From: Asparagopsis taxiformis
Lineage: Eukaryota > Rhodophyta > Florideophyceae > Bonnemaisoniales > Bonnemaisoniaceae
Reading direction: 5' to 3'
Assembly: GCA_030407315.1 (NCBI GenBank)
Contig: JALQPE010001687.1
Span: forward strand, 62,001-126,000
DNA: 64,000 nt
Notes under the pieces: generated by a model
The model's input: the letters and a program-made list of their open reading frames with translations, nothing else
What the model was told of the DNA's origin: nothing
Databases searched by the model: none
Part shown: positions 3,450-48,181 of the stretch, piece by piece
Numbering within the stretch: the first letter of the stretch is position 1
How the letters are laid out: each line of letters begins with the position of its first letter
Translations under genes and position numbers: made by a program

Positions 3450-6400
3450 ATGGAAGGAACGTTCCACAATCACGGTGAAAAGCACGACGGATGGGTGTTC
3501 ATCGACCCCAATCAAGTCAGCAAATTCGTATCGATTCGCGATGTTGATGCAAGTCATGTGGAAGCGCTCATGGAGAGCATTCGCAACAGCGGTTATGACA
3601 CAGCTCATCCCGTGACTGGCAGGTTTCGAGAAGGCGTTCTGGAGATATTGGATGGAGCGCACCGCTGCATGGCAATTGTACGTGGAATGGAGAAGGGCGT
3701 CTTTCCTCCTGGCGTTACGATTCCTATGCGAGAAGAGTCTATCGTGGCGGACACCAACAGCAGTACTGCTGTTGTGCTGGACCGTGTGAGAGCGACGACA
3801 TCCAACGACATTGCAGGCCTGCAAAGGCGCATGATGTTTGTTGAGTATCTGATGATCGCCGTTGATCTCAGAGACGAGTACTGGGTCCAAAACGGAAAGG
3901 ACAAGTACGCTCATATTTCGTCTGTGAGGATGGCTGATGTGTTGGGCTGGATCAAATCCTGCGATCCAAGCGGCCAAATTGCTTCAAGCCTGAGTGGTAA
4001 ACCGCAGTACAGCTCATGCATGTCTATCCTGGCTGTGCTTCGGCCGTATCACCGAGCAGAAGATTCGAGTTCGATTGATTTGCGTCTGTGGCAAATGTTT
4101 TGTCATGCATGGGGACTCAATGCAGAGATGGGTGATTCTCCGAGGATGGTTGAGTTTCCGAAACAGGTGGGGGTGACTAGTTCTCGTGCCGTCGAAATGT
4201 TTGGCAAGACACCCCGCGGAGAATTGTCCTCTCCACTGAACCGCGAACTGCTTTCGAGCAGGTACTTTCTAGACGGCGCTACATCCGACATGCAAGATTC
4301 TTTGCAGGCTAGCCAGAAGCGGTTCAGGAGGCTGATGGTTATGATGTGCCAGTGTATCTTGGCTATTCGCAGTAAGGAGATGGGCAGTGCGCCATTCAGG
4401 CGGGCCAGAGCCACATCCGGGGCCATTGGTGGTGGTGGAATGGTTGGAATTGCAACATCCAGTGCGCAAGCCAACCAGCTTGGATTTGTTGTCGACCGTG
4501 TGTTAGCTGCGTGGGATACCGGGGCAAGAGTGTTGGGGTATGAGGATGTTGAATCGATGTGCTGGCCGTTCATGGTATTCGATCCTGCGAGCCTTTGCTT
4601 CAGGTCACTCCCGAATCGGTCTGATGGCTGCGCGGTCGAGGAGCATCGGAAAAACCTGACCATTGTCCCGAAAACTGTAGACAGTGAAAACGGGTTCTGT
4701 GCCGACCTTCCAGTGGCTGTGGATGCAAGGCTGCGATCATTGACAAGCGCCTTTCTGCTGTCGATACGCCAATGTGTCACTGAGGTGAATGTGTTCGCCG
4801 AGCGTGGTCAGCTGATGCAGAGACTTCGAGCCTTGCTTTTCGACACTCCTGACAAGTTCGGCTTGAACTCGTTCATGCGAGCCAAGTTGAACACGTCTCA
4901 TGCCCTGGATGGTCAGAGGAGGCTGAAGGCTTGGTTATTGCGAACCCGAGAGCAACGAAAGCTTCCTCTGACCATGGATGAGTTGCACAGTCTTGAGGAT
5001 ACGCCCGAGCCTGGCATCCTTGAAGGTGCACCTGCGCAGATGGAAATATCCGCAGCAGTGCCAAACAATGGCAGCGAGGATATAGAAGAGGATAGTCTGG
5101 AGCCACAGAGGAAGAAGGCTAGGCTGGAGCGCGGTGGTGGAGAGGACGATAATGCGGCGGTTGCTAGCGAAACAGCAACAAGAGAAGGTGCGGCCGAGGA
5201 TGACGCTATGGAGGTTGACACTGTATCGCCTACAGAAGCACCGCTCGTTGACGTCGGAAAGGAATCCAAGCCGGAATATGTCACCAAGCTGGAAGCTGTG
5301 ATGGGGCGTTACATTCACACTGTGAATTGTGACGCCACTGATGTAGCCAAAGAGGTGGAGGACAAAATTAGTTTCCTGGAAGATGGCGTGTTGGAGGACA
5401 GTGTTCAGCTTGTGCTCACTGATCCTCCATTCAACACGAGGCGGGAAGGCGGCAGAGAAAACTCGGAGTACGATATTCTGGAGCCGGAAGAGTTGGCGAG
5501 TGTTGCGTGTGAAATAGTTCGAGTTCTTCGGCCTGGCGGTCATGCTCTAATCTATTCCAGCGTGCGCCAACTCGTGGCATGGATGGATGCAATCAGAAAT
5601 GCCGAGCCTGGCAAGATGATTGTGGACAGTGTTCCAGTCGTGCTATCTCGCCGACCACACAGCTTTACGTCCAATCCATCGACGAAAACGTGCACACTGC
5701 ATAATATGCACGATTTCGTTATCCATGCGTATAAGCGGGGGAAGGGTATGGCTGCATACGATATGGTGGATTACAGGTTGCACAATCCGGACATATCGAG
5801 GCAACCTGGGTTCACCAACGCGATTGACAACGTTCCGAGGTTGTCGGCTGGTGAAGCTCAATACGATGGGCAGAACAACCGACTGCGCCATGAGCAGAAG
5901 GCGTTGACCACTCTTCGTGAGCTTCTGGAACGATTTTCGAAGCAGAACGATATCGTGATGGATTTCTTCTCGGGAACATACAGCACAGCCATAGCGTGTA
6001 TGACGTTGAGGGATGGTACGTATCGTCGGTTCATTGGGTGTGAGAAGGAAAAAAGGTGCCACGATGCATCGCAGGAGTGGATACTGCATGCTTTCGTCAG
6101 TGAGGTGAAAGCCGGGCGATATGGGGGGATCTTGCAGCGTGAGGTGGAGAGTATTCTTGGGGACGAGTCGGTACCGGTCACAGGAAAAGCTCCAAGGCTT
6201 CGTCAGAAGCACATCTCAGATGCACCAGAAGGTTTACCTGCTGTGACAGCATTGCCGAACCATCTGCTTGTGTTCGTTGCGTCAATGAAGAAGGACGGTT
6301 CTATGCTTCACAGATTGAGCGGGGTGCCTATGGACCAGTGGCCGGCCGAGGACATGCACTCGTTTTGGAGCATAGACCCGGACGCGATTCTGGCTGCTGA

Positions 6401-6917
6401 TGCCGCATTCTACGGTGTCTATGTTTCGCAATCGGAGGTAAGAGGTGGTGGGTTTGGCGTATTCGCGGCGAAGAAACTGAAGAAGGGGACGGTCATTGGC
6501 TGGTACAACGGGACGATTTTCTATGCGAAGATTCGAGACTCAGAACCGCAGAGATCAGTGATGTACGGCCCGGAAGGATTTGGGTGCACAGGAGAGAGGT
6601 TCCAGGACTACAACATGGAATTGGAAACCACGTACATAGGGAGGGGTGCACCTGTTCGGAAGGTCTGGCTCGTTCCAGCGGTCTATAATTGTACCAGCTA
6701 CCTCAATGATTGTCGGGTCATTGACGGAACGGAGAAAGCGACCGAGGTGAGTCGAACACAGTCAGCCGAGTTTCGACAAGGCGATGCCATAGACAAACCG
6801 GACTTTGCTTCAAATATCAAGAATCCCCATGCTGTCAAGGTCGTTCTGACCAGAGACGTTGAAGCTGATGAGGAGATATTTGCTGACTATGGTAGAAAAT
6901 ATTGGCCAGCTAACTGA
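3450..6917 (+). CDS. ParB-like / N6-N4 DNA methyltransferase / SET fusion protein, 1155 aa
   Basis: The start is ATG 3450 in a strong context (GCCATGG). Three modules are visible. Residues about 10-75 are a ParB/Srx-fold N-terminal domain with the DGAHR motif at 68-72. Residues about 640-870 are a beta-class amino-methyltransferase (N6_N4_Mtase) with DPPF at 658-661 preceding the AdoMet-binding DFFSGT at 838-843. Residues about 988-1150 are a SET domain with GGFGVFA near 1000, YLND ending near residue 1087 and a terminal FADYG. A basic/acidic linker (QRKKARLERGG) probably holds a nuclear localisation signal. Known of the families: ParB-methyltransferase fusions occur in bacteria and phages, and SET domains methylate protein lysines in eukaryotes. 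Inferred: a nuclear protein that binds DNA, methylates adenine or cytosine amino groups and methylates a histone or other protein. The reading frame is intact. A convergent ParB-dioxygenase gene follows after about 1.8 kb of repeats. Confidence 0.85.
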   Translation: MEGTFHNHGEKHDGWVFIDPNQVSKFVSIRDVDASHVEALMESIRNSGYDTAHPVTGRFREGVLEILDGAHRCMAIVRGMEKGVFPPGVTIPMREESIVADTNSSTAVVLDRVRATTSNDIAGLQRRMMFVEYLMIAVDLRDEYWVQNGKDKYAHISSVRMADVLGWIKSCDPSGQIASSLSGKPQYSSCMSILAVLRPYHRAEDSSSIDLRLWQMFCHAWGLNAEMGDSPRMVEFPKQVGVTSSRAVEMFGKTPRGELSSPLNRELLSSRYFLDGATSDMQDSLQASQKRFRRLMVMMCQCILAIRSKEMGSAPFRRARATSGAIGGGGMVGIATSSAQANQLGFVVDRVLAAWDTGARVLGYEDVESMCWPFMVFDPASLCFRSLPNRSDGCAVEEHRKNLTIVPKTVDSENGFCADLPVAVDARLRSLTSAFLLSIRQCVTEVNVFAERGQLMQRLRALLFDTPDKFGLNSFMRAKLNTSHALDGQRRLKAWLLRTREQRKLPLTMDELHSLEDTPEPGILEGAPAQMEISAAVPNNGSEDIEEDSLEPQRKKARLERGGGEDDNAAVASETATREGAAEDDAMEVDTVSPTEAPLVDVGKESKPEYVTKLEAVMGRYIHTVNCDATDVAKEVEDKISFLEDGVLEDSVQLVLTDPPFNTRREGGRENSEYDILEPEELASVACEIVRVLRPGGHALIYSSVRQLVAWMDAIRNAEPGKMIVDSVPVVLSRRPHSFTSNPSTKTCTLHNMHDFVIHAYKRGKGMAAYDMVDYRLHNPDISRQPGFTNAIDNVPRLSAGEAQYDGQNNRLRHEQKALTTLRELLERFSKQNDIVMDFFSGTYSTAIACMTLRDGTYRRFIGCEKEKRCHDASQEWILHAFVSEVKAGRYGGILQREVESILGDESVPVTGKAPRLRQKHISDAPEGLPAVTALPNHLLVFVASMKKDGSMLHRLSGVPMDQWPAEDMHSFWSIDPDAILAADAAFYGVYVSQSEVRGGGFGVFAAKKLKKGTVIGWYNGTIFYAKIRDSEPQRSVMYGPEGFGCTGERFQDYNMELETTYIGRGAPVRKVWLVPAVYNCTSYLNDCRVIDGTEKATEVSRTQSAEFRQGDAIDKPDFASNIKNPHAVKVVLTRDVEADEEIFADYGRKYWPAN

Positions 6918-7192
6918 GCTACTTTGATAGATTTGAGTAAACACGCATTGACAGAGACAATAGACTGTGCATCATCTTCCAAGAGCGCTAGATATTATAG
7001 ACTACACTACAACAATCGTGACATGACTGCAGGAAGGCATCTGCGGCCTGGAGTGCAAACTATCCACTTTTCTACTGCTATACCTATGGATACGAAAAGG
7101 AGAGAAACTAGAAAGATGTGAGTGCGAAATTGTGTAGCAACGCAGCATGTAGAACACCAGTAAGACAGCGATGTAGGAGAAGCAGTCATCCC

Positions 7193-7401
7193 ATTACAGT
7201 GCGGGCCGTTTACCGGGGATGCTGACAGCAAAGTCATCGTTACGATGACTTTGCTGTAAGAAAACAAATCATTACAGCAGCCACGATTTCTTTACCGGGT
7301 AAAAAAATTGTGGCCGCTGTAATGATTTGCTTTCTTACAGCAAAGTCATCGTAACGATGACTTTGCTGTAAGGAACCCTGGTAAACGGCTTCGGCTGTAA
7401 G
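7193..7401. repeat. palindromic-module repeat (MITE-like), locus 1
   Basis: The outer ends are related inverted sequences (ATTACAGTGCGGGCCGTTTACC at left, complement of CTTACAGCCGAAGCCGTTTA at right). Inside are two copies of a 39-bp near-perfect palindrome, with half-site CTTACAGCAAAGTCATC and centre GTTAC or GTAAC, and a second inverted module around ACCCGGTAAAAAA. There is no coding capacity. The same modules recur at 7933, 12603, 16305 and 54415. A non-autonomous DNA transposon or fold-back element is likely. Confidence 0.8.
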
Positions 7402-7479
7402 CAGCAGGGAGTTTCGTCCTTCTCCCATCTTGGTAAAGGTACCTTTACCAAGATCGGAGAAGGAAGAAACTCCCTGCTG
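7402..7479. repeat. 78-bp inverted repeat centred on GGTACC
   Basis: CAGCAGGGAGTTTC at the left is mirrored by GAAACTCCCTGCTG at the right, and TTGGTAAAGGTACCTTTACC forms the centre. It abuts palindromic locus 1. A half copy follows locus 2 at 8282-8321, and related sequence lies left of locus 4, so it is part of a larger repeat unit. Confidence 0.75.
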
Positions 7480-7563
7480 TCTCACATGAGAAGCGAAGTG
7501 TGAAGTAGGGAAGATCACGAGAGGATGGTTTGGACGGCTGTTGGTCGCAAAATCTACTCCTTG

Positions 7564-7653
7564 TGCCGTGAGCCACAGCGACCATATGGTACCTGTGCCT
7601 CACGGCATAAAATATATATTTAACCCGCCCGGGCGGGAACCGGCGCCGGTTCC
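7564..7653. repeat. cluster of perfect palindromes
   Basis: The inverted pair TGCCGTGAG (7564-7572) / CTCACGGCA (7599-7607) is followed by CCCGCCCGGGCGGG (7624-7637) and an 18-bp palindrome centred on GGCGCC (7636-7653), which overlap by two bases. No ORF is present. The cluster lies in the extended flank of the palindromic repeat family. Confidence 0.7.
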
Positions 7654-7932
7654 GGTGCACTATAGTCGTCAATAAGTAGGACTCTAGCTACTCACTATAC
7701 AACTATAATCGTAAGGTAGGATAGCCTAAGATCGTAGTACGGAAGAGACGGATGGGAGGGTGTGTGTAGAGGAAAATTAAGGCGGCAGTACGAGTAGCCT
7801 ATCGTGGTAATAGACGAGTATTTCATTGCGAGAGGGGGCGTGAGGGGGGAAACGAAAGGCGTCAGTCGTCACCAGAGAGGCTGGGATGCTGAAGACGGAG
7901 TAGAGAAATGGGGGAGAGGGTGAAGCCAGACT
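7654..7932. other. intergenic, nothing recognised
   Basis: No ORF, repeat or RNA gene is supported in this stretch between two repeat loci. Confidence 0.4.
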
Positions 7933-8282
7933 GCTTACAGCTTTGGCAGTTCCGGCGGGGTGCTGACAGCAAAGTCATCGTTACGATGACTTTGCTGTAA
8001 GAAAACAAATCATTACAGCAGCCATGATTTCTTTACCGGGTAAAAAAATTGTGGCCGCTGTAATGAAACGTTTTCTTACAGCAAAGTCATCGTAACGATG
8101 ACTTTGCTGTAAGAAAGCAAATCATTACAGCGGCCACAATTTTTTACCCGGTAAAATTTCTTGCTGATTTTTTACCCGGTAAAAAATTCTTTGGCCACTG
8201 CAAGGAAACGGTTCCTTACAGCAAAGTCATCGTTACGATGACTTTGCTGTAAGGAACCCTGGTAAACGGCTTCGGCTGTAAG
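7933..8282. repeat. palindromic-module repeat (MITE-like), locus 2
   Basis: This has the same architecture as locus 1, with three copies of the 39-bp palindrome (near 7966, 8074 and 8215) alternating with GCGGCCACAATTTTTTACCC-type modules. The right end matches locus 1 (GGTAAACGGCTTCGGCTGTA) and runs into a half copy of the GGTACC-centred inverted repeat. Confidence 0.8.
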
Positions 8283-8757
8283 CAGCAGGGAGTTTCGTCC
8301 TTCTCTCATCTTGGTAAAGGTAAGAAGCGAAGTTTGAAGTCGGGTAAATTGCTCAGCAAAGGTCTGTACGGCTGTGAGCAGCTCTCAGGAGTATTTTACC
8401 TCACGTGGTCTCTGTTCAGGTTATACCCTGTATATATATAGGTAGCCTAGTGTAGGTGGGAAGATAGACGAAAATTCTACAAATAATTTATCACAGTGAC
8501 GGCTCTCGTAGTCGAAATCTGCGCGTTGTCAAGGGTTGAAACTAGTCTCCCCCTACGGCCTAGCTAGTAAAATCATATAACGTTGTAGACTAATATTAAA
8601 AAGTAGCAAGCAATCTGCTGAGTAGCACTAAACTATGAGATGAAGGACAGATGTATAGATGAGAACTGAAAAATGGGCTAAGGTAACAATGTTGAGATGA
8701 GAAAGACAAAACTTTATAGCAGGGAACAGTAGTATAGGTTTTAGTACTTCTGATATG
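8283..8757. other. intergenic, nothing recognised
   Basis: The first 40 bases continue the repeat of locus 2. The rest is AT-rich unassigned DNA downstream of the ParB-dioxygenase pseudogene. Confidence 0.4.
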
Positions 8758-10430
8758 CTATCTATTGCTCCTATCGTACTTGTAATATTCGACGGTGTGG
8801 ATGTGGTCCGTGAGGACGTCCTTCTCCGTCTTCAAGTAGATGTGGCCGCGCGTGGGCAGGCCATAGACTAGCTTTTCGCCGTAGGAATATCTCCGCGCTT
8901 GAAGCCGACCCCGTAATGATAAAGGTCACCGCGACCAACCAATACGGAATAGGGTGGCACATACAGCCTATGAATGGGAACCTTCCACATATCGGCGTCC
9001 GGATTGGCCAGGCATACATGACTATAAGGGGCAGCTACTATAGAGAATCCATCTGCTCCGCTCGACATCATGAAATATGATGGAGACTCGGTAGGTCCTG
9101 CAACACGACTCGTTGATACCTTGAAGTCCGTGTGCCCATCCTGGTCCGCAGCCCCATCTGCTGTAAGAAGCAGCCGCAATCCTGTCTTCGGGAAGAAGAC
9201 AGGATCATCACCCTCCATTCCCAACTTCAAGAACTCCGCACAAACACCAAGAGCAAGCTCTGCCACCAACTTGTTCTTGTACATCTCCAAATTCCCCTCC
9301 TCCAACTTGTCGCACAACTCACGCCGCGGCAGAGAGAGGCGCCCACGACCACCATCGATGCGGTCCTTCGCATCACCCAAGTTGTGGATGAACTGCCACG
9401 GCGAAGGATCGAAGCCGGGCTTTGCGAAAGCTGGCGGCTCGTCCTGTGGCTCCCTGTCGTCATCGTTAGAATCAGACTGCTGGGAGGGTTTTTCAACCTC
9501 CTCAACCAGCGGGAACTGCCTAGCGAAGTGACCGAACAACTCATGCGTCGCATTACCAGCCGTGGACGATGCCAACAGGCCTTCCATAACAATAACCCCC
9601 AAGTTTTCCAACAATGCCTTCTTCACCGCAAAGTACCTGTCCACCACCGTATCCTCAGCACCCGGCGATGCAGCTGCCTGGAATGCTGCCGCCCTCATTT
9701 CCGCCCGAACCGTCTCCACCGTCGTACTTTCCATATAGTACTTCATCCGGCTGCCAGACGCAATTGCGCTGGGGAGAACGGCGGCCACATTCTCATCGAC
9801 GATGCTGTCGGGAATGGGATTCTCCTGGGCGTCGTCGAACTGGAGAACCGGCTCCCGAGAGCGACCTCGGGAAGCCGACTTGGATTTCTTTGACGACGAC
9901 TTCGAAGAAGTCTCACCGAGCCTTCTCTTTTTGGTAGAAGGCTCGGGCGTCGCAGAAGCTGCTTCCAAGTTACGCTTCCCGAGGATGGAGTTTTCACCCG
10001 CATCCTCGGGGGCGCTCTCCAGCTCGACGACCTCCACAGCACCACCCGCCGTTCCACCACGACCGGAACGACTCGCTTGCAGGCGGGTACTCCTTCTGGG
10101 CATCACTTTCCTCCCAGAAGTTTCCACTCCGGGCGGTGCAGAATCACTGACTTCAATGACATCTTCGTCAGGATCTGCACCGCCCTTCGCACTGCTGCCC
10201 TCGACCACATTCTCGGGAGTAGGGCCCTCCGTCGAAATCCTCGCAACCGTCTTCTGTCCAACCCCACCGGATGGTGAAGGGACGAAGCTGTCATCGCTGG
10301 AGCTTCCCGAACTGCTAGCAGATGCAGAACGGGAAGCTTCGACAGCGGGGGCCGGAGCAGCAGGGTGCTGCTCGGCAGCCGGAGTCGCAGGCTCAGGCTG
10401 CGAAGCCGGTGAGACCTGCTCCTGCGCGGC
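8758..10430 (-). pseudogene. 2OG-Fe(II) dioxygenase half of a broken ParB-dioxygenase gene
   Basis: This is the same reading frame as the upstream ParB half, beyond an in-frame TAA at 10431-10433. After an acidic/Ser-rich linker with an RRSTRL motif it encodes a dioxygenase fold closely matching the C-terminus of the gene at 50649-53743. Fe ligands HTD lie at 9126-9134, and YFMMSSGADGF and PPYSVLVGRGDLYHYGVGF carry the distal His. The frame then stops at 8868-8870. A +1/-1 shift between about 8885 and 8905 restores an open frame to 8758 with PTRGHIYL, which aligns with RYHTYF (2OG-binding Arg) of the intact gene at 44225. I infer one frameshift plus one nonsense mutation. If transcribed, a GTG at 10208 or an internal ATG could start a shorter protein. 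Confidence 0.75.
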
Positions 10431-12398
10431 TTAGACAGGACGGTTGGGGGTACCAGTCCCGGCGTGGGAAACTGGACCAGAGCGTTCGCTGCCATCCTGG
10501 GGACCACGCGCAGTCGGCTTGACCGGGGTCACCGCAGGGGAGGATGCCGAAACGGCAGGGGTAGAGACAGGAACAGGGGCAACCTCGGAATTGCTGGAAG
10601 ATTCCAGTTGAGGGGGTGGGGGCAAAGGAATGGAGGATGAAGGGATGGGCAAGGAATTGGAAGAGGAAGGGATGGGGGCATCATCACCACATGTGGCTGG
10701 GAGCGCAGCATGTGGGATGTCTGGGTACATCGCGTGAAAGCGTTTCCGCATTTGCATGTCGCGGTACCCAGTGACGCGCAGGAGCATTTTCCTGGCGTCC
10801 TTCCCGAAGACAGACTTCTTACGGGGAAAAATATTTTCGTAACTGTAACCATCGGGGGGGCCTTCCTTGGGACGGAAGTCTGCCCAACACCCCTTCTTGG
10901 GGACCATCTGAGCAAGAACTTCGACAACGCGCGAGCGAATGTCGAAGCTCTTGCTCGGGTCACCCCGGCTGGGAATTGACCCATCCAGCATCCTCAACTC
11001 ATCCGAAACGTTCCAATACTCGGCCACCTCCTTCACGTACCCGAAGATTTCCAACAAACCGGCAATCCATTCCTGCCCAATGGTACCAACCGAGTACGGT
11101 TTCAGCCCGGCCGACCGACGGCTACAAGTGTAGCGCGCCGTCATCTCCAGGATGAAACACTTCTGCACATCCGGAGCACTCCTGAACGACCCATTGAACA
11201 ACAAGTTCACCGTACAACCAGCCAGATCCTCGGTCGAAGAGAACTGCACGAACTCCGGCCTGTTCGGGATGCTCGACCAGTACTTGAAAGCAGGGCTTTC
11301 AATGGTCTTGAACCCTCGCGCGATCGAGACGTAGCGCATGAGCTGTCTCGGACGAATCCAGCTCAGCACTTTCCGTTCTTTTATGTATTGAACGGTCGGC
11401 TCGATCTTCTTCTTTCCCAGGCGGTGGATATTGATGAACTCCATCACAGAGCACACATTGTCAGCAACTGTTACCTCGCTGACATTGTGGGTGTGGAAGT
11501 TCATCAGCCGTGAAAGCGGGAGTACTTCTTCGGAGCAGAAGACATCCCGGCCAAGCCGAGTCGGTGGGAGGAGAAAGTCGACTGGAATAGTTCCAAAGCG
11601 ACGGTAGATGTCAGACTTGACAAACTCCTCCCACTCTGGACTGTCCTTCGCAGGAGCAGGTCCAGCCGACTCGAGAATGGCCTTCAACGCGGTCACTCGG
11701 TGAGATCCATCGACGTATTGCAGTCGGACTTTGGCATTGGAATCAATCACCTCGCAGACGGACACGCGTGAAGCAATCACGGAAAATCCCTGAGTGAGAA
11801 ACGTTTTCTTCAACTCATCAACGCGATGCGGCCTGACCACCCTGGACACGACTGCCGGAGGAGAAACATCCAGGGGGGAAATGAAGACTGGAATGTTTCG
11901 GCAGCTCTCCGGACTTATATCGTAGTCCACATCCACCGGGATGGGCACTGTGCCAGGGTAGGCCAGCCTGGTGCTGCGGAGAGGCTTGTTCGGTACGATG
12001 TCACGAGCGTTGTGATCATCGACCTTCTCCGCATCCTCTGCCAAGTCGCTGCCGGACGCGATGATCATGTCCGGAGCAGGCGAGCTAGGCAGAGGAGCAC
12101 CAGATCCCTCGACGGCTGGCGCCGCTTCGGCAGATTGAGCCGGAAGCGGAGTTGCGGGAACGCCAGCGTCGATTGTCGGGACAACCGCGGGATCGGAAGC
12201 GGAAGGGGGGGAGGGGACGGGCTTAGGTGCTGGGCTGAGCTGGGTCAGCGCTGCAGCAGCTTCGCAAACGTCCATGGGGACAGGGGGGGCCAGAGAAGGA
12301 GAAGGAGAGGGAGAGGGAGAAGGAGAGGGAGAATCGTTGTCACGGCGGCTGGCAGAGCGCACCTGGCGGTCGAAAGCGTTGGGGGATTGTTGAGCCAT
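10431..12398 (-). CDS. ParB-like domain protein, N-terminal half of a broken ParB-dioxygenase gene, 655 aa
   Basis: The start is ATG at 12398 (MAQQSPNAF). Upstream in-frame TTG codons give a hydrophobic extension that I reject. Residues about 20-30 are an SP dipeptide run encoded by a GAGAAGG-type microsatellite. A ParB/Srx-like domain spans about 170-300, with the hallmark DGSHR at 230-234 preceded by VVRPHRVDELKKTFLTQGF. A helical middle region (VADNVCSVMEFINIHRLGKKK, YVSIARGF) is shared with the gene at 50649-53743. The frame ends at TAA 10431-10433 after TGTPNRPV, but the next codons continue in the same frame into a dioxygenase domain. The stop is therefore probably a recent nonsense change (CAA to TAA is possible). 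The protein would bind DNA without the oxygenase. Confidence 0.75.
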   Translation of the reverse strand: MAQQSPNAFDRQVRSASRRDNDSPSPSPSPSPSPSLAPPVPMDVCEAAAALTQLSPAPKPVPSPPSASDPAVVPTIDAGVPATPLPAQSAEAAPAVEGSGAPLPSSPAPDMIIASGSDLAEDAEKVDDHNARDIVPNKPLRSTRLAYPGTVPIPVDVDYDISPESCRNIPVFISPLDVSPPAVVSRVVRPHRVDELKKTFLTQGFSVIASRVSVCEVIDSNAKVRLQYVDGSHRVTALKAILESAGPAPAKDSPEWEEFVKSDIYRRFGTIPVDFLLPPTRLGRDVFCSEEVLPLSRLMNFHTHNVSEVTVADNVCSVMEFINIHRLGKKKIEPTVQYIKERKVLSWIRPRQLMRYVSIARGFKTIESPAFKYWSSIPNRPEFVQFSSTEDLAGCTVNLLFNGSFRSAPDVQKCFILEMTARYTCSRRSAGLKPYSVGTIGQEWIAGLLEIFGYVKEVAEYWNVSDELRMLDGSIPSRGDPSKSFDIRSRVVEVLAQMVPKKGCWADFRPKEGPPDGYSYENIFPRKKSVFGKDARKMLLRVTGYRDMQMRKRFHAMYPDIPHAALPATCGDDAPIPSSSNSLPIPSSSIPLPPPPQLESSSNSEVAPVPVSTPAVSASSPAVTPVKPTARGPQDGSERSGPVSHAGTGTPNRPV

Positions 12399-12602
12399 TG
12401 CTTTGGTGAAGAAATGAGGAAAGAAGAGTGAAAGATTGAGAAAGAGAGAAGAAGATCTGAACGACAAGCTGTTTTGCTGCGTAAGCTGAGTAAGATAGGC
12501 GAAACTTAGAGATCTGACATATTCCTATTAGTATACACCCTGGTAATGATATTCAGCGGTTGACCAATCCGAACCTTCCACATCACTTTTCGTTGTACGA
12601 CA
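12399..12602. promoter_or_regulatory. 5' flank of the ParB-dioxygenase gene
   Basis: A pyrimidine-rich (on the minus strand) leader precedes the ATG at 12398. No specific element can be proven. Confidence 0.25.
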
Positions 12603-12926
12603 ATTACAGCTCAGGCAGTTTACCAAGGATCCTTACAGCAAAGCCATCGTTACGATGACTTTGGTGTAAGGAAACGTTTCATTACAGAGGCCAGGAATTT
12701 TTTTACCGGGTAAAGAAATCATGGCCACTGTAATGTTTTGTTTCCTGACAGCAAAGTCATCGTTACGATGACTTTGCTGTAAGAAAACGTTTTCATTACA
12801 GCGGCCAGGAATTTTTTTACCGGGTAAAGAAATCATGGCCACTGTAATGAAACCTTTCCTTACAGCAAAGTCATCGTAACGATGACTTTGCTGTAAGCAT
12901 CCCTGGTAAACTGCTCCATCTGTAAG
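12603..12926. repeat. palindromic-module repeat (MITE-like), locus 3
   Basis: The clearest complete copy, about 324 bp. The ends are inverted (ATTACAGCTCAGGCAGTTTA at left, complement of CTTACAGATGGAGCAGTTTA at right). It contains three copies of the 39-bp palindrome, the left one diverged, separated by two GGCCAGGAATTTTTTTACC modules. Target duplications are not clear. Confidence 0.8.
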
Positions 12927-13216: not shown

Positions 13217-13395
13217 CTAGTGTCTATCGGACATTAAAATTTCCTCATATGAGGTCAACCCTGGCCTCATATGAGGCAGAAAAAAAATCTACTAGAAATT
13301 ATTAGAATTTAGCATTCCCTCTTTATATCGCTTTTATAAAACTTCTAACGCAAGCATTGCATTGTATAAAGCATTGCTTGCCTTTCGGACACATG

Positions 13396-40516: not shown

Positions 40517-40997
40517 CTCACTGAGAATGGGCCTGGTAGGCCTAATTCCGTGAGAAAACTTTGACCCTCGATTTCTCTATGAAGGAGTGGTCTGAGCGCT
40601 CTGAAACCTATCTCATCGTATTCAGCGTGCCCGAATTAGTCGGGTAGCAACTTCTCCGGGGCTCCTACGACACTCCATTACGGAGTAACTGGCCTCTGAA
40701 GTTTCAATTTGTTTGTCATAGTTTCAATTAGTAATTAGAAATGCCAGGATGGGTTGCCATCATGGCAGAGGGAAAATGTTATGATAAGTGTACACGTGTG
40801 GATGATATGATAGAGAAGCCCACGTGTACCAGATTGGCAGCGGGTGCTTGCTAGGACAGACTGTCAGTGACAGTCTGTCTGGAGCAGCCTTGAAAGGCTG
40901 TCCTTAGCACCGCCGGCGCACCTCGGCGAGAATACAAATTATGTAGTGAGCTCGCAGATTCAGTAAACGCTCGGTAAGCGACCAAACTTTATCAACA
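40511..40997 (+). repeat. 3' LTR of the plus-strand copia element
   Basis: 487 bp, TGTTGACTC to ATCAACA, followed by target duplication CCTCG. The gag-pol stop codon TGA is formed inside the first LTR bases. Confidence 0.93.
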
Positions 40998-41595
40998 CCT
41001 CGAACGTTTCCGGTGGAGCAAGAACGAAGGCGCTTGGTTCCCCGCGCTGCGGCGCCTGTAGTGGCGAAGGAAGCATGTTACATCCAATAAGGAAGGTCTG
41101 CGGCACGATCCCAGAAAGGATGCAGTGCTCAACCCATTGCCCGATACGCTCATCCTGTCTTGAAAACTCGGCAATCGGTAATGCCAGACGAACAATCTGC
41201 TTGGCTCGCTCAACGTTCATCTCTGCCATGACGATTTCGGCAACATCCGCCTCGACTCCAGCATTCTTCGAACGACCGCTGAAGGCCATGCTGAGTCGAC
41301 CTTGCAGCGCCAGAAATTGTTCTTCTGTGCCCTGCGCAACCCAAGCGCCAAGGTCCGCGTATGTGAAACCTCCCGGCTTGTTCGTCAAGTCTGCGAAACT
41401 TGAGTGGGCGAACAAATCCAGCAAGAGGCGGAGGAAGTCTTTGCCAGCGAGAGTAGTTTCGCGGGCGGCGCGACCTACGTTTCGACGTGTACCCATGCCA
41501 CTAGAATCCTCCCAAGGGCTAGCGGGTTCGCGCAGAATTGGCACGGTTGCGTCGTCAACGATCGGATTGCTGTTGCGCCTGCGCTTATTCGTCAT
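40998..41595 (-). pseudogene. methyltransferase-SET gene interrupted by copia, upstream part
   Basis: ATG 41595 (MTNKRRRNSNP, a probable nuclear localisation signal). About 200 residues run to the CCTCG duplication, where the frame enters the LTR; the last residues LIKFGRLPSVY of the raw ORF belong to the LTR. No ParB DGxHR motif is visible, so this paralogue seems to lack the ParB-like domain, or it lies upstream and is diverged. The region corresponds to the helical domain between ParB and methyltransferase in the intact paralogue at 3450. Its start codon is 2.6 kb from, and divergent to, that of the dioxygenase gene at 44225. Confidence 0.7.
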
Positions 41596-41936
41596 AATGG
41601 AATGAGTGGAAATTCGGTACAGGATGGCGACCGCTCGGCGAGACAGTCAAATTTGACGACGTATCTCGTGACGTTTGCACTCTTTCGTGAGGAACACTGG
41701 TTGATATCGAACGGAACAGAGTATACGGGTACACAGCACTGGAAAGGTCTTGAAACCCGTAACCGGTGTAGGTAATAAGTTGTGACGGATACGTGGTAGA
41801 CAAAAATTTTAAAAGATTGTGATTCCCTGTCTTTGAGGGTTGTACTGCACGGCCGCCATGGCGGCTGTGACTGCAGTCACATAGGTTGTCACAGGTGCAT
41901 CACGCTTACCAGGTGAGCGACATCCGGACGGCCACT
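41596..41936. promoter_or_regulatory. 5' flank of the interrupted methyltransferase-SET gene
   Basis: No ORF is supported. It lies between the start codon and a KpC-type repeat copy and presumably contains the promoter. Confidence 0.3.
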
Positions 41937-42123
41937 GGACATGGGGATGTCCAGCTCAGATGCATTGCTGGCCAGACCAGAAATTCTACAATTTCGGGCA
42001 GCAAAAATATTGCAAAAAACATCGATTTGGGCGGTCGATTGTGCCGTACGGCACACCCCCATCTCAAAAACATGTTCACATGTGCATGTTTTTGAGAATA
42101 GCCCAAATTTTAATTCAAATCAG
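41937..42123 (+). repeat. KpC-type repeat unit, internal copy
   Basis: GATGTCCAGCTCAGATGC, then CCGTACGGCACACCCCCATC, the CTCAAAAACATG hairpin and CCCAAATTTTAATTCAAATC. It is inverted relative to the copy at 31511, so the pair encloses the methyltransferase-SET gene like terminal inverted repeats about 190 bp long. Confidence 0.75.
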
Positions 42124-42429
42124 GATGCAGATATTCGTCTTCTAGCATTGTCAGAACACATTCGTATAACCACATTTGGAGAACCTGAGCCCAGAGCTAT
42201 CGGTTTTGGCGGGAGCTAAGCCATATCTCATATAATCAGTAACTACTTCCCGCCAGCTGAGTGGTGGAACCCCTGCTATTTCTACCAACGAGACATACGG
42301 GGTGTCAACTCGGCAATCGTATATGATTTGGGTGCTAAATTTATTCAAGAGACGAATGGGCTTCGAAAAGGAGCCCAACAACGTCTTCTTGTGATCCATG
42401 GGTATAGGACTACTCTATTCTTCTCCACG

Positions 42430-42775
42430 CTTCCACCATAGCCTCCTCCACCACCTCCGTTAATGGATCGAATATCCGAACCGCACCTCAACATGCTTTT
42501 CTTCTCATCCATGGGTACTGACATCTGCGAGATGTGAGTCACATGTTCTCCAGGCTTGCACCATAGCCTCCTCCACCACCTCCGGTAATGGATCGATTAT
42601 CCGAACCGCACATCAACATGCTTTTCTTCTCATCCATGGGTACTGACATCTGCGAGATGTGAGTCACATGTTCTCCAGGCTTGCACCATAGCCTCCTCCA
42701 CCACCTCCGTTAATGGCAACATGTGAGATGTCAGTACCGGACAAGTTCTCCAGGCTTCCTCCGTAGCCACCTCCT
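42430..42775. repeat. 125-bp tandem repeat, about 2.8 units
   Basis: Units begin near 42430, 42555 and 42680 (CACCATAGCCTCCTCCACCA) and contain CATGCTTTTCTTCTCATCC. On the minus strand each unit encodes a Gly-rich run (GGGGGGYG), but 125 is not a multiple of three, so no continuous protein results. Confidence 0.75.
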
Positions 42776-43004
42776 CCACCTCCGTCTGTGGGAATCAACA
42801 CAACATCACCACTGCGTCTTACCTCACATCCACATCTCTCCGGGATGAAAACGGACGGACGACATAGGGTTTGTAGACGTTTAGAATCTTGTTAGAAAAA
42901 AGTAAACGAAAGAGAAGTTCTCTTTCATTGAATGATATCTCCTCCCTGTCTCAATATGTTCCATTTTCATTTTCTCGGGTTGCACACCCATCATGGGTGA
43001 TCAA

Positions 43005-43092
43005 GGCCTGGATCGAACCCTCCGAGGGTCTTCGATGGATAGGACAGATAGTGGAAGGCTTTTAAGCCTGTGACCAAGCGGCTATTGATTGG
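43005..43092 (-). other. tRNA-like segment
   Basis: On the minus strand, TAGCCGCTTGG resembles an A-box, AGGCTTAAAAGCCT could be an anticodon arm, and GGGTTCGATCC (43010-43020) is a perfect B-box. The spacer is long and the acceptor stem is not convincing. It could be a Leu/Ser-type pseudo-tRNA. Confidence 0.3.
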
Positions 43093-43321
43093 TTGGAGGA
43101 AGGAAATTACAGAGGAAATATAGCTGAGTACGGTGCTCGCGATAGCTGTTAGGTTAAAGTCAAATATGTTTTTCGATTATTTTTCGTACGGAAATGGCTT
43201 CGAAAAGACGATGCTTTGTCGTTCTCTCGGAGGGAGTCCGTTCCATTGCACTCAATTCGAGAGCATCGTCATGAAGGAGAGGATTCTTTCTGCTAGTTAG
43301 AATCGGTTTAGAGGAGATAGC

Positions 43322-43940
43322 TAATGCATTACTGGCCAGCCCAGAACTTGTAGAATTTCGGGCAGGAAACAAATTGCAAAATTTTATCGATTTAGGCGGT
43401 CGAAAGTGCCGTACGGCACACCCCCATCTCAAAAACATGTTCACATGTGCATGTTTTTGAGAATAGCCCAAATTTTAATTCAAATCAAGGTGTCTAATTT
43501 GGCCAGAACGGCCCCAGGCACCGGCCGCCGCCCCGAGTGGGGTTGTCACTGGCTTCTGTAGGCACTAACTGTAAGGCTAAATGGCGTCTGACGAAGGGTC
43601 AATTTCAGGCTCAATACGCCAGGGACAGGTCTTGGTCCTTGTTCCATCATGGTCCCGCCTCACTGTCTCACGACCAACCTGAAATGGACGTCCGGTGGAT
43701 GTCCAGCTCAGATGCACTGCTGGCCAGCCCAGAAATTCTAAAATTTCGGGCACAAAAAATCTTGCAAAAATCAACGATTTGGGCGGGTCGATTGTGCCGT
43801 ACGGCACACCCCCATCTCAAAAACATGTTCACATGTGCATGTTTTTGAGAATAGCCCAAATTTTAACTCAAATCAGGGTGTTCCCCGGATAAAGGGGTGC
43901 TCGCAGCCGCCCCAAAAGCCGCCTAGCTTGACAGCTGTAA
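43322..43940 (+). repeat. two KpC-type repeat units with a 190-bp linker, left of the dioxygenase gene
   Basis: Unit 1 is 43322-43488 and unit 2 about 43680-43940. The linker (TTTGGCCAGAACGGCCCC, TAAGGCTAAATGGCGTCT) recurs between the two units at 48459-48918, in the same orientation. The composite therefore forms direct repeats on both sides of the gene at 44225. Unit 2 extends to GGGGTGCTCGCAGCC and CAGCTGTAATT, matching the outer end of the copy at 31511. Confidence 0.75.
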
Positions 43941-44224
43941 TTTTAACACATTACACATCAAGGACACTGCCTGCTTCACGCCACCTCGTCAGGTTTCGAG
44001 AGCCCGACTCGGGCCCGTTCCGAACGGACACTCACATCTCGATTGCCTGTCTTGCATTCCAGCGGTCACGATAGGTGTGTACCTAACAAAATTTCGGTTG
44101 TATTGTGTTATTATTTCCAGCGATTGGCGTTCACGACCGTTCTTCAAGCAACGTGAAACCTACCATCCACATCACTCGAATACGTCAACGTCAACCATCT
44201 CTTTTACTTTCCAACTCAACAATC

Positions 44225-47200
44225 ATGGCGGATACGCATTTCAGCAGTTTGTTTTCAACGGTTTGCGGCGATCAAGTGAGCGCATCAGCGGAGTCGCGCG
44301 GACTCAAGCGCGGCGTCGATGTCAATTTGTTTGCGGACGTGGACGGTGCGGCTGTGCATATTGGGACGGCTTCGGTGAGCACTGCTGGTGGCGATGTTGG
44401 CCTTCCGCGCACGCTGCACAACCACCAGCTGCCGGAAACCGACGAGGCGGACTATATCGTCGTGCGCAACATTGCGACTAAGGACAAGTTCAAGGACCTC
44501 CCGTTCCCGTACATGTTTGATGGCGCCGAGGGACCGCCGGAGACGATGGGTGGAGCATACGCCGCGGCGTTTTACCCTTGGGATACTCGGATGATGCGCC
44601 CCGCTGCGGAGGATGGCCCTAGCGACATTCGTACCCCTGCTGCAGCGTCAAACTTCAACGCAGCGACGAACCAGGCCAGCTCGGGACGGATGCCCAGTAC
44701 CGGTCCGGCAGGCGAAATCACTGGTTCGGGGGGTACGAAGCATCCAGCACGCTCCGTCCCGGTTTCGGGAGGCACGAAGCGCCCTGCTCGCTCTGCAAAA
44801 CCCTCCAGTGGAGGCACGAAGCACCCTGCTCGCTCCAACGTCACCGAAGCTACTACGCAGGACGTAACCGAAGTGGACGACGAACCGGAGGTGGCGGAAA
44901 GCATTCGTGAGCAGCAGGGGACGCAAATTACGGTGCCCAAGTTTGTGACGTCGGATTACGTCGGAGAAGGAGCGACTGTGCTGGTGAGGCAGCTAGTGGA
45001 ACCGGCCGTGACCCTTCGGGATGTGAAAGAAGACCACGTGGAGGACCTGCGCAACAATATGTTGGCTGTGGGGTATGTGAGCTCTTCGCGTATCACTGTG
45101 ACGGTGCTGAGGTCGCAGAACACGCATCTGCCCGCCGACACGCGTCTGTTCCAGAATGGCAAATTCCATGCCAATGCGAACGTGACCGTGATCGACGGAC
45201 TGCATCGTCTCAATGCTATGCATAGCATTGCCGATGACTTCACTCGCCTCACCCGTATGCACAGAACCAAGCTGCCACAGGACGCAAACCGCTTGCGCTG
45301 GGTTACTCAGCCTCTGGATGTGTACTACCTTCGCCGCAAGGACAACAGTGATCTTCAGCCTCATGAGATCATCCACAAGAGTGCAGAGTCGAACCATACG
45401 ACTGGGACGCAACTGACGGAGCGCTCCCTGGTTCGAATCTTGTCGTCCATCCAGCAGTTCATCCGTACGATTGCTGTTGCAAATAACGTGGAAAACGCTG
45501 GCGACTTGCGTGAGTCTGATGTCATCCGAACATTGTTCGAGGCGCAGTTCATGGGGATGATGAATTCAACGAACACGGCCCGGCGGTGGACGCGTTTGGC
45601 TATAGCAACGCTGAAGCATCCTGTTCTCGACGAAGTGTTGCGTGAGCTGAACAATTCCGAGCGCCGCAACGAGATTGGGATAACGCACCTGGACCACAAG
45701 ATAGTGCGCGAGTTGCTGGAAGAAAACTTTGTCTTCGTCTTGCGTGGTCTTTCGGAGTACTTGAACCCTGCTCATGGTGGACGTCCGGATGGACGCTTTG
45801 ACGTGAACGACTTCTATACATACGTCCGTCGCGTGACTGCAATAGCAAATTCTCTGTACGCTGCGTTTGGGCGCCCAAAGAGTATTATGCGCAAGTCATT
45901 TCTGAGCACAGAGATGGCAATTGGGTCGGTTAAGCAGCCGAAGGAGTTGCAATGGCATCTCACCAATGCCATTGCAATGTATAGAGGGGACGACCGGAGC
46001 AGTGAGGTTCGAATGCGACGGAGAGCCACGCGTTTACAGGATTTGGAAACGAACTTGAAAGAGTTTTTCAATCCGACATTGAAGAAGAAGACTAAGGCTC
46101 GACGCAAACGCCGCCCTTCTGCTGCCAATGTGAGACTCACTCACAAGAAGCAGCGGAATGTCGAACATGAGCCTGCTTCGCATGGCATCCGCCGCCGTTC
46201 ACAGCGACTTCGCTCGACGGGGAGCACACGCCTCGAGGAAGAAGAGCCGGTTGTGGTACAACAATCCGCCGGGGAAGAAGAACAGGCCGTTGTTGATAAA
46301 CCCACCGATCAACAACAAGCCACTGCTTCCGGTGATGAGGTTGACGAAGACTCCGCCCGTTCCCCCGATTCTGCCGTTGAGATTGTCCCCCAAGATAACC
46401 AACGTGCTGGTGCGACTCCCTCCAACCAAGAATCTGTCCATAACGTTTCGGACGAGGAAGAAAACAACAGTGCAGACGAGGGCCAAGTCGAAAGCAAGGG
46501 GGTCCGCGAAGTGACAATTACACTCACTGTTCCGGAAGGAGTCGAAGTCGATGAAGACGGTTACATCGTTCGTGACTCTCCTTCTGAACACGACCTCCTG
46601 TTCGACGACCGGATGCCATCTCTTCCCGACGATTTCGAAGTCAAAGACCGAGCTGAAGGGCATCATCTGGCGCAGCGTCCCGCGGACGTCATCGCATCGG
46701 TGAGGGTTGGTTGTCTGCCCCCGATTGAGCTCAGGTTGTTATTGGAGGGTGTGGAAATCGATGAGGAGGGCAGAGAGGTGAGGTATTTGAAGCAAGTGGC
46801 GATGGACCCTGTGTTTGAGGGGCTGCATATTCCGGAACAACATCGGGCTCGTCATCTTGTTTTCGAGATCGACACCATCTATCCGATGTTTTTCGCAGCG
46901 TGGAAGATGGCTGCCAAGGCGATGTGTGAGCCTACATCGACGTTTCTACCCTCGAGGCTGGACTTCGCCCAGGTTGCGCGAATGTCTACAAGCTGGAAGG
47001 ATTCGTATGAGGCCGGCACTGGTATGGCGTACTTCCACAATTGCCGAACGGAAATCAACGAGCGAGGGTATACGGTGATGCACAATTTCGCGGATGTAAG
47101 CTACCTCGATGCGTCGGACAAGTTCCCATTTGACTTGGGTCTCATGGAAGAAATTCCTATCCAGGAATTGTTTCGGTACTTTTTGGGAACGTGGGAGGGG

Positions 47201-48181
47201 GAGGAGGTGCACAAGGACCCTGGGAACCGGCAGCTGTGGAGTCCCATTGTCAATACGGGGGACGATGAAACAGATGAGAAGAACCGGAATGAGGGGAGGG
47301 CTCGCTTCACGTCTACGCGCCACTGCCTGGTTGACTATGCCGAGAACGATGAGACGCATATCGACCGGTTCAAGTTTGTGACGCGGCGAGCCCTGCTGGA
47401 TGTGTGGTTGGGAATCCTTGTCCGGCTGATAGGGCTGGAGGAGTGCGGTTTACCGGGAGAAAAACTTGTCATGCCGGCATCTGGGGGACGGTTTTTGATA
47501 ACGGGAAAGGGGTGTCCTCGGCAGGTCCCACACAATGATTTCCCTGTTCCTCCTCGCGACCGCAAAGATCAACTTCCGGGTTACTTTGTTATTGCCAACG
47601 GAGATGACCCATTCCCTATCTGGGTGTGTCCAGGGTCCCACAAGTACGTCTTTTCCAAAGCGCTGGAATTAGATATGTACGCCAAGACGATGAAGCTGAA
47701 GAAGGAAATCGTTCCGCCACGTTCAGTCTTCATCGGTCACGGCTATGTACAACATGCCGGGGCAGGGCATGTCGACAGAGTTGTGTCACACACGACAACG
47801 AGGTATCACACGTATTTCAGGAATGCGTCGTATCCGATTCCCGACAATGTTTCGTTTGGTTTCATCAGGCGGTTGGGATTCGAAGAAGAAATAATCCCCA
47901 ATGCTCCGCGCCGGTCTGCCAGGCAAAGTCAACCGGGACCTGTCAATGTTCGCCACAAGACAGTTGTTCCCATCCCGGTCAAGAAAGATCGTAGGCCGAA
48001 GACAGGGCAACTCGGAATCATGCGGATGAAGACGACAGAAGCTCCCAAGAAGAGAACCCTCACACCGGGTCAAAAATTCATCTTGAGCAGATCAACTCCA
48101 CAGTTGCCGATAACGCCTATTCTGCCGGGAGATCCTGAATATAGTGAGGACGAAGACGAAGAAGAATTTTCCGACGGCTAG
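44225..48181 (+). CDS. ParB-like / 2OG-Fe(II) dioxygenase fusion protein, 1318 aa, intact
   Basis: ATG 44225 (AATCATGGCG); a GTG 120 bases upstream is in frame but unlikely. Three direct repeats of SGGTKHPARS lie near 165-205. A ParB/Srx-like domain spans about 245-345 with DGLHR at 324-328. A middle basic region has clustered Lys/Arg (KKKTKARRKRRPS) and RRSQRL, followed by long acidic linkers. The C-terminal domain (about 880-1220) resembles phytanoyl-CoA-type 2OG dioxygenases. It has Fe ligands HND (H1103, D1105), WVCPGSH, a distal His in VQHAGAGH (H1177 or H1182) and RYHTYF as the likely 2OG-binding Arg. Inferred role: nuclear oxidation of a DNA base or protein methyl group at ParB-bound DNA. 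It is divergent from a methyltransferase-SET gene. Confidence 0.78.
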   Translation: MADTHFSSLFSTVCGDQVSASAESRGLKRGVDVNLFADVDGAAVHIGTASVSTAGGDVGLPRTLHNHQLPETDEADYIVVRNIATKDKFKDLPFPYMFDGAEGPPETMGGAYAAAFYPWDTRMMRPAAEDGPSDIRTPAAASNFNAATNQASSGRMPSTGPAGEITGSGGTKHPARSVPVSGGTKRPARSAKPSSGGTKHPARSNVTEATTQDVTEVDDEPEVAESIREQQGTQITVPKFVTSDYVGEGATVLVRQLVEPAVTLRDVKEDHVEDLRNNMLAVGYVSSSRITVTVLRSQNTHLPADTRLFQNGKFHANANVTVIDGLHRLNAMHSIADDFTRLTRMHRTKLPQDANRLRWVTQPLDVYYLRRKDNSDLQPHEIIHKSAESNHTTGTQLTERSLVRILSSIQQFIRTIAVANNVENAGDLRESDVIRTLFEAQFMGMMNSTNTARRWTRLAIATLKHPVLDEVLRELNNSERRNEIGITHLDHKIVRELLEENFVFVLRGLSEYLNPAHGGRPDGRFDVNDFYTYVRRVTAIANSLYAAFGRPKSIMRKSFLSTEMAIGSVKQPKELQWHLTNAIAMYRGDDRSSEVRMRRRATRLQDLETNLKEFFNPTLKKKTKARRKRRPSAANVRLTHKKQRNVEHEPASHGIRRRSQRLRSTGSTRLEEEEPVVVQQSAGEEEQAVVDKPTDQQQATASGDEVDEDSARSPDSAVEIVPQDNQRAGATPSNQESVHNVSDEEENNSADEGQVESKGVREVTITLTVPEGVEVDEDGYIVRDSPSEHDLLFDDRMPSLPDDFEVKDRAEGHHLAQRPADVIASVRVGCLPPIELRLLLEGVEIDEEGREVRYLKQVAMDPVFEGLHIPEQHRARHLVFEIDTIYPMFFAAWKMAAKAMCEPTSTFLPSRLDFAQVARMSTSWKDSYEAGTGMAYFHNCRTEINERGYTVMHNFADVSYLDASDKFPFDLGLMEEIPIQELFRYFLGTWEGEEVHKDPGNRQLWSPIVNTGDDETDEKNRNEGRARFTSTRHCLVDYAENDETHIDRFKFVTRRALLDVWLGILVRLIGLEECGLPGEKLVMPASGGRFLITGKGCPRQVPHNDFPVPPRDRKDQLPGYFVIANGDDPFPIWVCPGSHKYVFSKALELDMYAKTMKLKKEIVPPRSVFIGHGYVQHAGAGHVDRVVSHTTTRYHTYFRNASYPIPDNVSFGFIRRLGFEEEIIPNAPRRSARQSQPGPVNVRHKTVVPIPVKKDRRPKTGQLGIMRMKTTEAPKKRTLTPGQKFILSRSTPQLPITPILPGDPEYSEDEDEEEFSDG

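What the first reader, a model, noticed from the sequence alone, without database searches (positions are those of the whole stretch)
3450..48181. Two neighbouring methyltransferase-SET / ParB-dioxygenase gene pairs: a possible writer-eraser cassette
Type A (methyltransferase-SET) and type B (ParB-dioxygenase) genes are adjacent twice: 3450-6917 with 8758-12398 (convergent) and 31987-41595 with 44225-48181 (divergent). Recurrent pairing in different relative orientation suggests functional linkage rather than one duplicated block. The second pair is bracketed by one repeat family, suggesting mobility. It recalls the association of TET/JBP dioxygenases with KDZ transposons in fungi, but with different enzymes.
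Basis: partly seen in the sequence, partly recalled or inferred. Interest (0 to 1): 0.93.

Follow-up and report, generated by a model that had tools for sequence, protein, structure and literature searches.

The report
Giant algal transposons carrying chromatin-modifying enzymes
The two gene pairs are cargo of two different giant jumping-DNA families, one inserted inside the other, in what is very probably a red alga; both families carry a predicted DNA-and-protein methylating enzyme and an iron-dependent oxygenase that may help them control how the host silences or expresses them.

Summary
The window shows two nested giant DNA transposons in a 141-Mb genome, very probably a red alga. E1 (about 25.3 kb intact, CACTA...TAGTG ends) carries A1 (ParB-like/amino-methyltransferase/SET), B1 and a third gene B3 (ParB-like/dioxygenase), a transposase-like gene and two unknown genes. 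E2 (33.7 kb here, about 20.9 kb without two nested Copia elements; 2-bp target duplication; empty site in three other E1 copies) sits inside B3 and carries a Plavaka transposase, A2 and B2. Near-exact motif counts: 424 A1, 685 B1, 986 A2, 919 B2. In partial lists A1 lies within 10 kb of B1 in 81 of 100 (all convergent) and A2 of B2 in 40 of 80; mismatched pairings give 2 of 44 and 0 of 80. B3's C-terminal domain folds as a 2-oxoglutarate/Fe(II) dioxygenase, closest to small-molecule oxygenases; 'eraser' is inference. ParB-methyltransferase genes on algal transposons, SET genes on oomycete transposons and TET oxygenases on fungal ones are already in print; all three activities in one element I did not find in the papers I could search. 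Likeliest role: self-targeted chromatin modification that keeps the element expressed.

The parts
306..63443 (+). E1, CACTA-ended giant transposon copy; 5' end truncated at 306, right terminus CTTTTCAACACCGTAGTG at 63426-63443; interrupted by a piggyBac-like element and by E2
   Evidence: alignment to copies in C92, C1830 and C2260; termini; end-to-end copies 25,292 bp in C1830 and 25,264 bp in C74 (one search list)
393..1148 (+). 3' part of g1 (508 aa in C92, coiled-coil-like N terminus by eye, unknown function), truncated here at 306
1575..2936 (-). g2, 453 aa, unknown function
   Evidence: 332 codons read, open in 27 of 30 copies at a fixed offset
3450..6917 (+). A1: ParB-like N terminus, amino-methyltransferase (DPPF ... 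DFFSGT), C-terminal SET
7226..8249 (.). 5 copies of the 31-bp palindrome CAGCAAAGTCATCGTWACGATGACTTTGCTG between the 3' ends of A1 and B1
8758..12467 (-). B1: ParB-like / 2OG-Fe(II) dioxygenase gene; broken in this copy
12636..12893 (.). 3 palindromes (one with 2 mismatches) upstream of the B1 start
13221..16053 (-). nested piggyBac-like transposon (DDE_Tnp_1_7), duplication CTAG at 13217-13220 and 16054-16057; empty site in C92
16338..16508 (.). 2 palindromes between B1 and B3
16927..50647 (+). E2, 33,721 bp, inverted ends CGTCTGTGTTYTCGGAARTGGACGC, duplication TA at 16925-16926 and 50648-50649
19059..25509 (-). nested Copia element in E2, duplication AACAA (300-nt LTR stretch 100% identical)
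25924..28965 (+). Plavaka transposase of E2, 1013 aa
   Evidence: PF18759 1.1e-24; 1037 near-exact motif matches genome-wide
29043..31328 (-). 761-aa protein of E2, unknown function
   Evidence: no Pfam match over a cut-off
31987..41595 (-). A2: amino-methyltransferase (DPPY ... DPFSGT) and SET; split by Copia
34589..40997 (+). Copia element inside A2, duplication CCTCG, compared LTR stretches identical
44225..48181 (+). B2: ParB-like / 2OG-Fe(II) dioxygenase, open reading frame intact
50648..53743 (-). B3: ParB-like / dioxygenase gene of E1; E2 has cut off its C-terminal end (the ORF call 50390-53743 runs on into E2), so the distal His and the Arg are missing in this copy
54440..54688 (.). 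2 palindromes (one with 1 mismatch) between B3 and the transposase-like gene
55071..58307 (-). E1 transposase-like gene in two frames here (669 and 402 aa; 870 and 405 aa, overlapping, in C2260)
   Evidence: related to an 860-aa protein in C92

Best explanation
A and B are accessory genes of two giant transposon families (E1, CACTA-ended; E2, Plavaka) that multiplied recently in a probable red alga. SHOWN by sequence: the elements, their ends, the copy numbers and the pairing in both families; the catalytic-type domains; a shared ParB-like N-terminal region in A1 and the B proteins. INFERRED: the ParB-like domain brings both enzymes to the element's own DNA (in E1 perhaps to the 31-bp palindromes); A methylates adenine (or N4 of cytosine) there and its SET domain methylates a histone or another protein, setting an accessible chromatin state; the oxygenase B removes or alters a silencing mark, or another substrate, at the same sites. 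The pair thus works as an anti-silencing and self-regulation module.
For: Transposon ends, target duplications and empty site; copies hundreds-fold and very young; specific pairing; Plavaka at 6.5 kb in 34 of the 49 A2 that have one within 10 kb. Domains. A1 and a B relative share the ParB-like region, 30% over 71 aa, E 2e-5 in a single comparison. Twelve 31-bp palindromes (10 exact, 2 with 1-2 mismatches), all in E1 intergenic DNA, none in E2. Context in print: 6mA tracks H3K4me3 chromatin in the lineages surveyed (PMC12695648, passages); algal ParB-methyltransferase proteins were proposed to modify their own element (PMC12477816, passage); plant Vandal transposons encode a sequence-specific anti-silencing protein (stated in PMC12730594, passage).
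Against: No methylation, binding or expression data. The ParB-like call has no Pfam support and that region of the model has pLDDT 27-40. The dioxygenase's listed fold matches act on small molecules or proteins. A2 shows no DGxHR box. PMC12695648 does not mention red algae and found H3K4me3 not needed for 6mA in Acanthamoeba. The A1 pN/pS of 0.14 is biased because copies were chosen by protein similarity; for g2, distinct variants are 6 synonymous to 7 nonsynonymous, so constraint is only modestly supported. 19 of 100 A1 and 40 of 80 A2 places lack an exact-match partner within 10 kb.
Confidence: 0.5

Rival explanations
1. A and B jointly make a protective or signalling DNA hypermodification: one starts, the other finishes, and the product marks element DNA for its own transposase or against host nucleases. 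B is then a second writer, not an eraser.
For: Phages combine a methyltransferase with a 2OG oxygenase to modify DNA (stated in PMC12730594 section 4.2); A and B occur together in two transposon families.
Against: No glycosyltransferase or other finishing enzyme among the E1/E2 ORFs that were scanned; the methylated amino group of adenine is not the usual carbon substrate of TET/JBP enzymes (recalled).
Confidence: 0.2
2. A and B act on proteins or on timing rather than as a pair on the same mark: SET and the oxygenase modify the transposase or histones, and the methyltransferase domain gates transposition, as adenine methylation does for bacterial Tn10/IS50 (recalled).
Against: ParB-like regions fused to both enzymes argue for DNA targeting.
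Confidence: 0.2
3. The genes are passengers, copied along with no role in transposition.
For: Many copies lack one partner; shorter derivatives with both ends but no exact A or B match exist (E1: C19, C104; E2: C11, C14, C90; lists).
Against: Pairing in two separate families; two arrangements of A2/B2 both retained; A1 open over 1158 codons in the 30 fetched copies (selected copies); proteins with the same two-part build from two other public sources.
Confidence: 0.1

Closest known systems
ParB-like/DNA-methyltransferase accessory protein of Sola1-1_Ec32 (Ectocarpus; [quoted passage not shown] Petroll 2025; neither seen)
   Same: 1104-aa protein with ParB-like and N4C/N6A methyltransferase domains, on a 21.5-kb DNA transposon; self-modification proposed
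   Different: The passage mentions no SET domain and no dioxygenase partner; the superfamily is Sola-1 rather than CACTA or Plavaka
Enlarged En/Spm (CACTA) families of Chondrus crispus, 16-20 kb with 4-5 ORFs (Kojima 2013, cited in PMC6431247, passage seen; original not seen)
   Same: Red algal giant CACTA elements with extra ORFs
   Different: Identity of those ORFs not given in the passage; E1 is about 25 kb
SET histone-methyltransferase genes on HarbingerS and MuDR transposons of Phytophthora (Kojima and Jurka 2014, stated in PMC12730594 introduction, passage seen; originals not seen)
   Same: SET domain carried by a DNA transposon
   Different: No DNA-methyltransferase fusion or oxygenase partner mentioned in the passage; other superfamilies
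Fungal DNA transposons with TET/JBP dioxygenases, including Plavaka and EnSpm (PMC12730594: abstract, sections 3.2 and 4.2, passages)
   Same: Oxygenase cargo, recurrent capture by several superfamilies, proposed escape from silencing
   Different: Section 4.2 says these elements encode no additional protein for further modification; B here matches other oxygenase folds and carries a ParB-like part
Amoebidium giant repeats flanked by a Plavaka transposase (PMC11244446, passages seen)
   Same: Plavaka-associated repeats up to 50 kb with extra genes
   Different: Many of the extra genes described as tyrosine recombinases
Anti-silencing proteins of plant Vandal (MuDR) elements (PMC12730594 passage) and TnpA of En/Spm (recalled)
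   Same: Element-coded, sequence-specific relief of silencing
   Different: No enzymatic modification domains (recalled)

Membership tests
CACTA/EnSpm superfamily (E1) | CACTA...TAGTG termini | tested here: met
   CACTACGGTGTTGA.../...TCAACACCGTAGTG; 1408 exact 17-mer ends, 0 in control
CACTA/EnSpm superfamily (E1) | 2-3 bp target duplication | tested here: inconclusive
   2-bp match in 3 of 6 sampled facing pairs (C19 AG, C74 GC, C104 GA); none at the C1830 copy
CACTA/EnSpm superfamily (E1) | CACTA-type DDE transposase | tested here: inconclusive
   no Pfam match over a cut-off for the 870/405-aa gene; no structure made
Plavaka (E2) | Plavaka transposase | tested here: met
   PF18759, E 1.1e-24
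Plavaka (E2) | 2-bp target duplication | tested here: met
   exact in 6 of 10 sampled facing pairs (4 without) plus the window copy, whose empty site is seen in three contigs
Plavaka sub-lineages PlavakaA/PlavakaB as defined in fungi | termini TGT..ACA or CATCA..TGATG | tested here: not met
   E2 ends are CGTCTGTG...CACAGACG; so E2 is not filed under either sub-lineage
ParB-methyltransferase transposon accessory proteins (A) | ParB-like domain plus amino-methyltransferase on a transposon | tested here: met
   A1; for A2 the ParB-like part was not recognised
2OG-Fe(II) dioxygenases (B) | double-stranded beta-helix fold with HxD...H...R | tested here: met
TET/JBP dioxygenases (B) | closest relationship to TET/JBP | tested here: inconclusive
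   no such title among the 50 rows listed or the 50; sequence searches of the PDB gave no oxygenase
Writer-eraser pair | A and B act on the same mark | not testable with these tools
   no substrate or modification data

The most novel reading that the evidence does not exclude
Giant transposons of two superfamilies carry a complete self-addressed chromatin circuit: a ParB-like domain reads element-specific palindromes (a parS-like code) and brings a dual DNA-and-histone methylating enzyme and an opposing oxygenase to the element, so that each family writes and edits its own chromatin state independently of the host.
Probability: 0.2. Interest if true: 0.9.

Novelty: new variant of a known kind. 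Interest (0 to 1): 0.62.

Why it matters
If the reading is right, transposons here do not only evade silencing but bring their own double writer (DNA base and protein) and an oxygenase, in hundreds to about a thousand near-identical copies per genome. The question whether element-coded enzymes reshape host 6mA and histone marks becomes directly testable by long-read sequencing of one alga. It also widens the fungal TET-transposon theme to another lineage, other enzymes and a shared targeting domain.

Tried and rejected
Rejected: one tandemly duplicated cassette (A1/A2 23% identical over 936 columns; B1/B2 31% over 181; transposases without BLASTP similarity). Rejected: the repeat family around pair 2 as the element ends. 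g1 and the 761-aa gene as homologues: no BLASTP support. Relatives of A1 and of B2 in IMG/VR viral contigs: none confirmed (2 pattern matches for A1 failed tblastn). Relatives of A1 in 5.8 billion proteins: 1 at E<=0.001, 100% identical, among the 7988 candidates that were scored. B3 oxygenase region: 3 at E<=1 among 3060 candidates (one 100% identical, P0003, P0004); the profile search returned only the identical one among 7994 scored. First structure job (3 sequences) had mean pLDDT 33.9 and was not used. Second job had mean pLDDT 38.9; in the oxygenase part (about 831-1070) ten-residue means run from 34 to 85; the ParB-like part is not interpretable. TET/AlkB titles are absent from the listed fold matches; this does not exclude them. 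Paper searches did not list a methyltransferase-SET fusion or a ParB-dioxygenase on a transposon; I saw listings and the passages named in the report, not the other listed papers. The Bostrychia paper that might report them is not held.
Full report
What the window is. The genome is 141.5 Mb in 3156 contigs and holds 13 phycobilisome-linker matches (PF00427), some on contigs that also carry A2 or B2 places (C38, C216, C235). It is therefore most likely a red alga; no name was available. Of the 17 ORFs scanned with Pfam, those with a match over its cut-off are A1, A2 and transposon genes: two Copia polyproteins, a piggyBac-like DDE_Tnp_1_7 and a Plavaka transposase.

E1. Thirty loci of A1 with 1.5-kb flanks were fetched; of the 29 other than the window's own, 28 align with it from the first base (98.6-99.7% in the leading piece) and one from base 721. 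Comparison with copies in C92, C1830 and C2260 shows that window segments 306-13220, 16052-16927 and 50648-59313 are parts of one element, broken here by two insertions. Its ends are CACTACGGTGTTGAGAATG and CTTTTCAACACCGTAGTG, 25,292 bp from end to end in C1830 and 25,264 bp in C74 (one search list). The 17-base end motif occurs 1408 times, control 0. Facing ends show a 2-bp duplication in 3 of 6 sampled pairs and none at C1830. Gene order in the A orientation: g1 (+), g2 (-), A1 (+), B1 (-), B3 (-), transposase-like gene (-). CACTA ends and a red algal host fit the enlarged En/Spm families of Chondrus crispus (PMC6431247, passage).

E2. The stretch 16927-50647 is a second element inserted into E1's B3. 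Three other E1 copies (C92, C1830, C2260) read straight through the insertion point. Its ends are inverted repeats (CGTCTGTGTTTTCGGAAGTGGACGC and CGTCTGTGTTCTCGGAAATGGACGC) with TA on both sides. The end motif occurs 2475 times, control 0; 6 of 10 sampled facing pairs have an exact 2-bp duplication, 4 do not. It carries a Plavaka transposase, a 761-aa gene, A2 and B2, plus two Copia insertions whose compared LTR stretches are identical and which have 5-bp duplications AACAA and CCTCG. The 10 sampled pairs span about 20.0 and 20.8 kb (C52, C88), 11-12 kb (five), and 10.0, 15.6 and 29.1 kb: full-length-like, deleted and enlarged forms.

Abundance and pairing. With up to 3 mismatches, motif counts are A1 424, B1 685, A2 986, B2 919, Plavaka 1037, E1 transposase-like 479; all controls 0. 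Positions are listed only for the first 100 exact matches of each, so the pairing test uses those. A1 has B1 within 10 kb in 81 of 100 (B1 has A1 in 81 of 100), all convergent, 1.3-3.3 kb apart. A2 has B2 in 40 of 80 and B2 has A2 in 40 of 100 (contigs up to C256): 24 divergent, 15 same-strand, 1 convergent. Mismatched pairings: A1 with B2 2 of 44, A2 with B1 0 of 80. Uniform scatter would give about 9-12%. A2 has Plavaka within 10 kb in 49 of 86, 37 convergent, 34 of the 49 at 6.5 kb; B1 has the E1 transposase-like gene within 15 kb in 39 of 89 and A1 in 32 of 88; crossed, A1 with Plavaka 5 of 47, B1 with Plavaka 4 of 49, A2 with the E1 gene 4 of 86, all within 15 kb. Copies without a partner may be truncated, diverged or at contig ends; this was not separated. 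The same-strand class suggests a second E2 arrangement with an inverted A2 module.

Age and constraint. In 30 copies A1 differs by 0.19% on average and is open over 1158 codons in all 30, but these were the best protein matches, so the low pN/pS (0.14) is biased. The neighbouring g2 gives 0.21 over 332 codons in 27 copies, with 6 distinct synonymous and 7 nonsynonymous variants; 3 copies were dropped because the fixed-offset frame was not open.

A candidate target. A 31-bp palindrome, CAGCAAAGTCATCGTWACGATGACTTTGCTG, occurs 12 times in the window (10 exact, 2 with 1-2 mismatches), all in E1 and all between genes: 5 between A1 and B1, 3 upstream of B1, 2 between B1 and B3, 2 between B3 and the transposase-like gene. 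It recurs in the corresponding parts of other E1 copies (9 in L036, 5 in L038, 9 in L033; none in the left parts L032, L035). E2 has none, but has 10 GGACGTCC sites where about 0.5 is expected from base counts: 6 near its ends, 3 in the repeats around B2 and 1 inside B2; 4 more lie outside E2. Binding is not shown; hairpin or terminator roles are possible.

Comparison with what is known. [quoted passage not shown] SET histone-methyltransferase genes on HarbingerS and MuDR transposons of Phytophthora, and a sequence-specific anti-silencing protein of plant Vandal elements, are stated in PMC12730594 (passage). The same paper describes fungal DNA transposons with TET/JBP oxygenases, Plavaka and EnSpm among the carriers (abstract and two sections). 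What I did not find in the searches is the methyltransferase-SET fusion, the ParB-oxygenase, and both in one element. The most relevant paper, Petroll 2025, is not held, so novelty is uncertain. On re-checking I lowered interest from 0.64 to 0.62, because transposon-borne SET genes turned out to be in print.

Verdict. Ordinary part: these are transposon genes. Unusual part: two separate transposon families in one genome keep the same pair of chromatin-type enzymes at very high copy number. I rate the transposon assignment near certain, the shared targeting as likely, and the eraser role as open.

Noticed in passing
13221-16053: piggyBac-like DDE_Tnp_1_7 element with a clean CTAG duplication and an empty site in C92 (piggyBac usually uses TTAA, recalled)
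   Followed up: partly
C2260 67001-76000 (L037): The left part of E1 (g1 and the start of g2, about 2.96 kb) is repeated three times in tandem next to the element
   Followed up: no
16921-17634 and 60892-61925: 43-bp tandem repeats shared between the left end of E2 and the right part of E1, 35-bp repeats near the E1 right end (60315-63250), and a direct duplication there spaced 2,286 bp
   Followed up: no
C19, C104 (E1, 14.44 kb) and C11, C12, C14, C49, C90 (E2, 11-12 kb): Recurring shorter forms with both ends, possibly moved in trans
   Followed up: partly
L034 1150-3732: A further 860-aa transposase-like protein in C92, 28% identical to that of E1
   Followed up: no
genome-wide A2/B2 places: Two arrangements of A2 and B2 (divergent, often near 7.8 kb; same strand, mostly 6.6 kb), suggesting an inversion within E2
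   Followed up: partly
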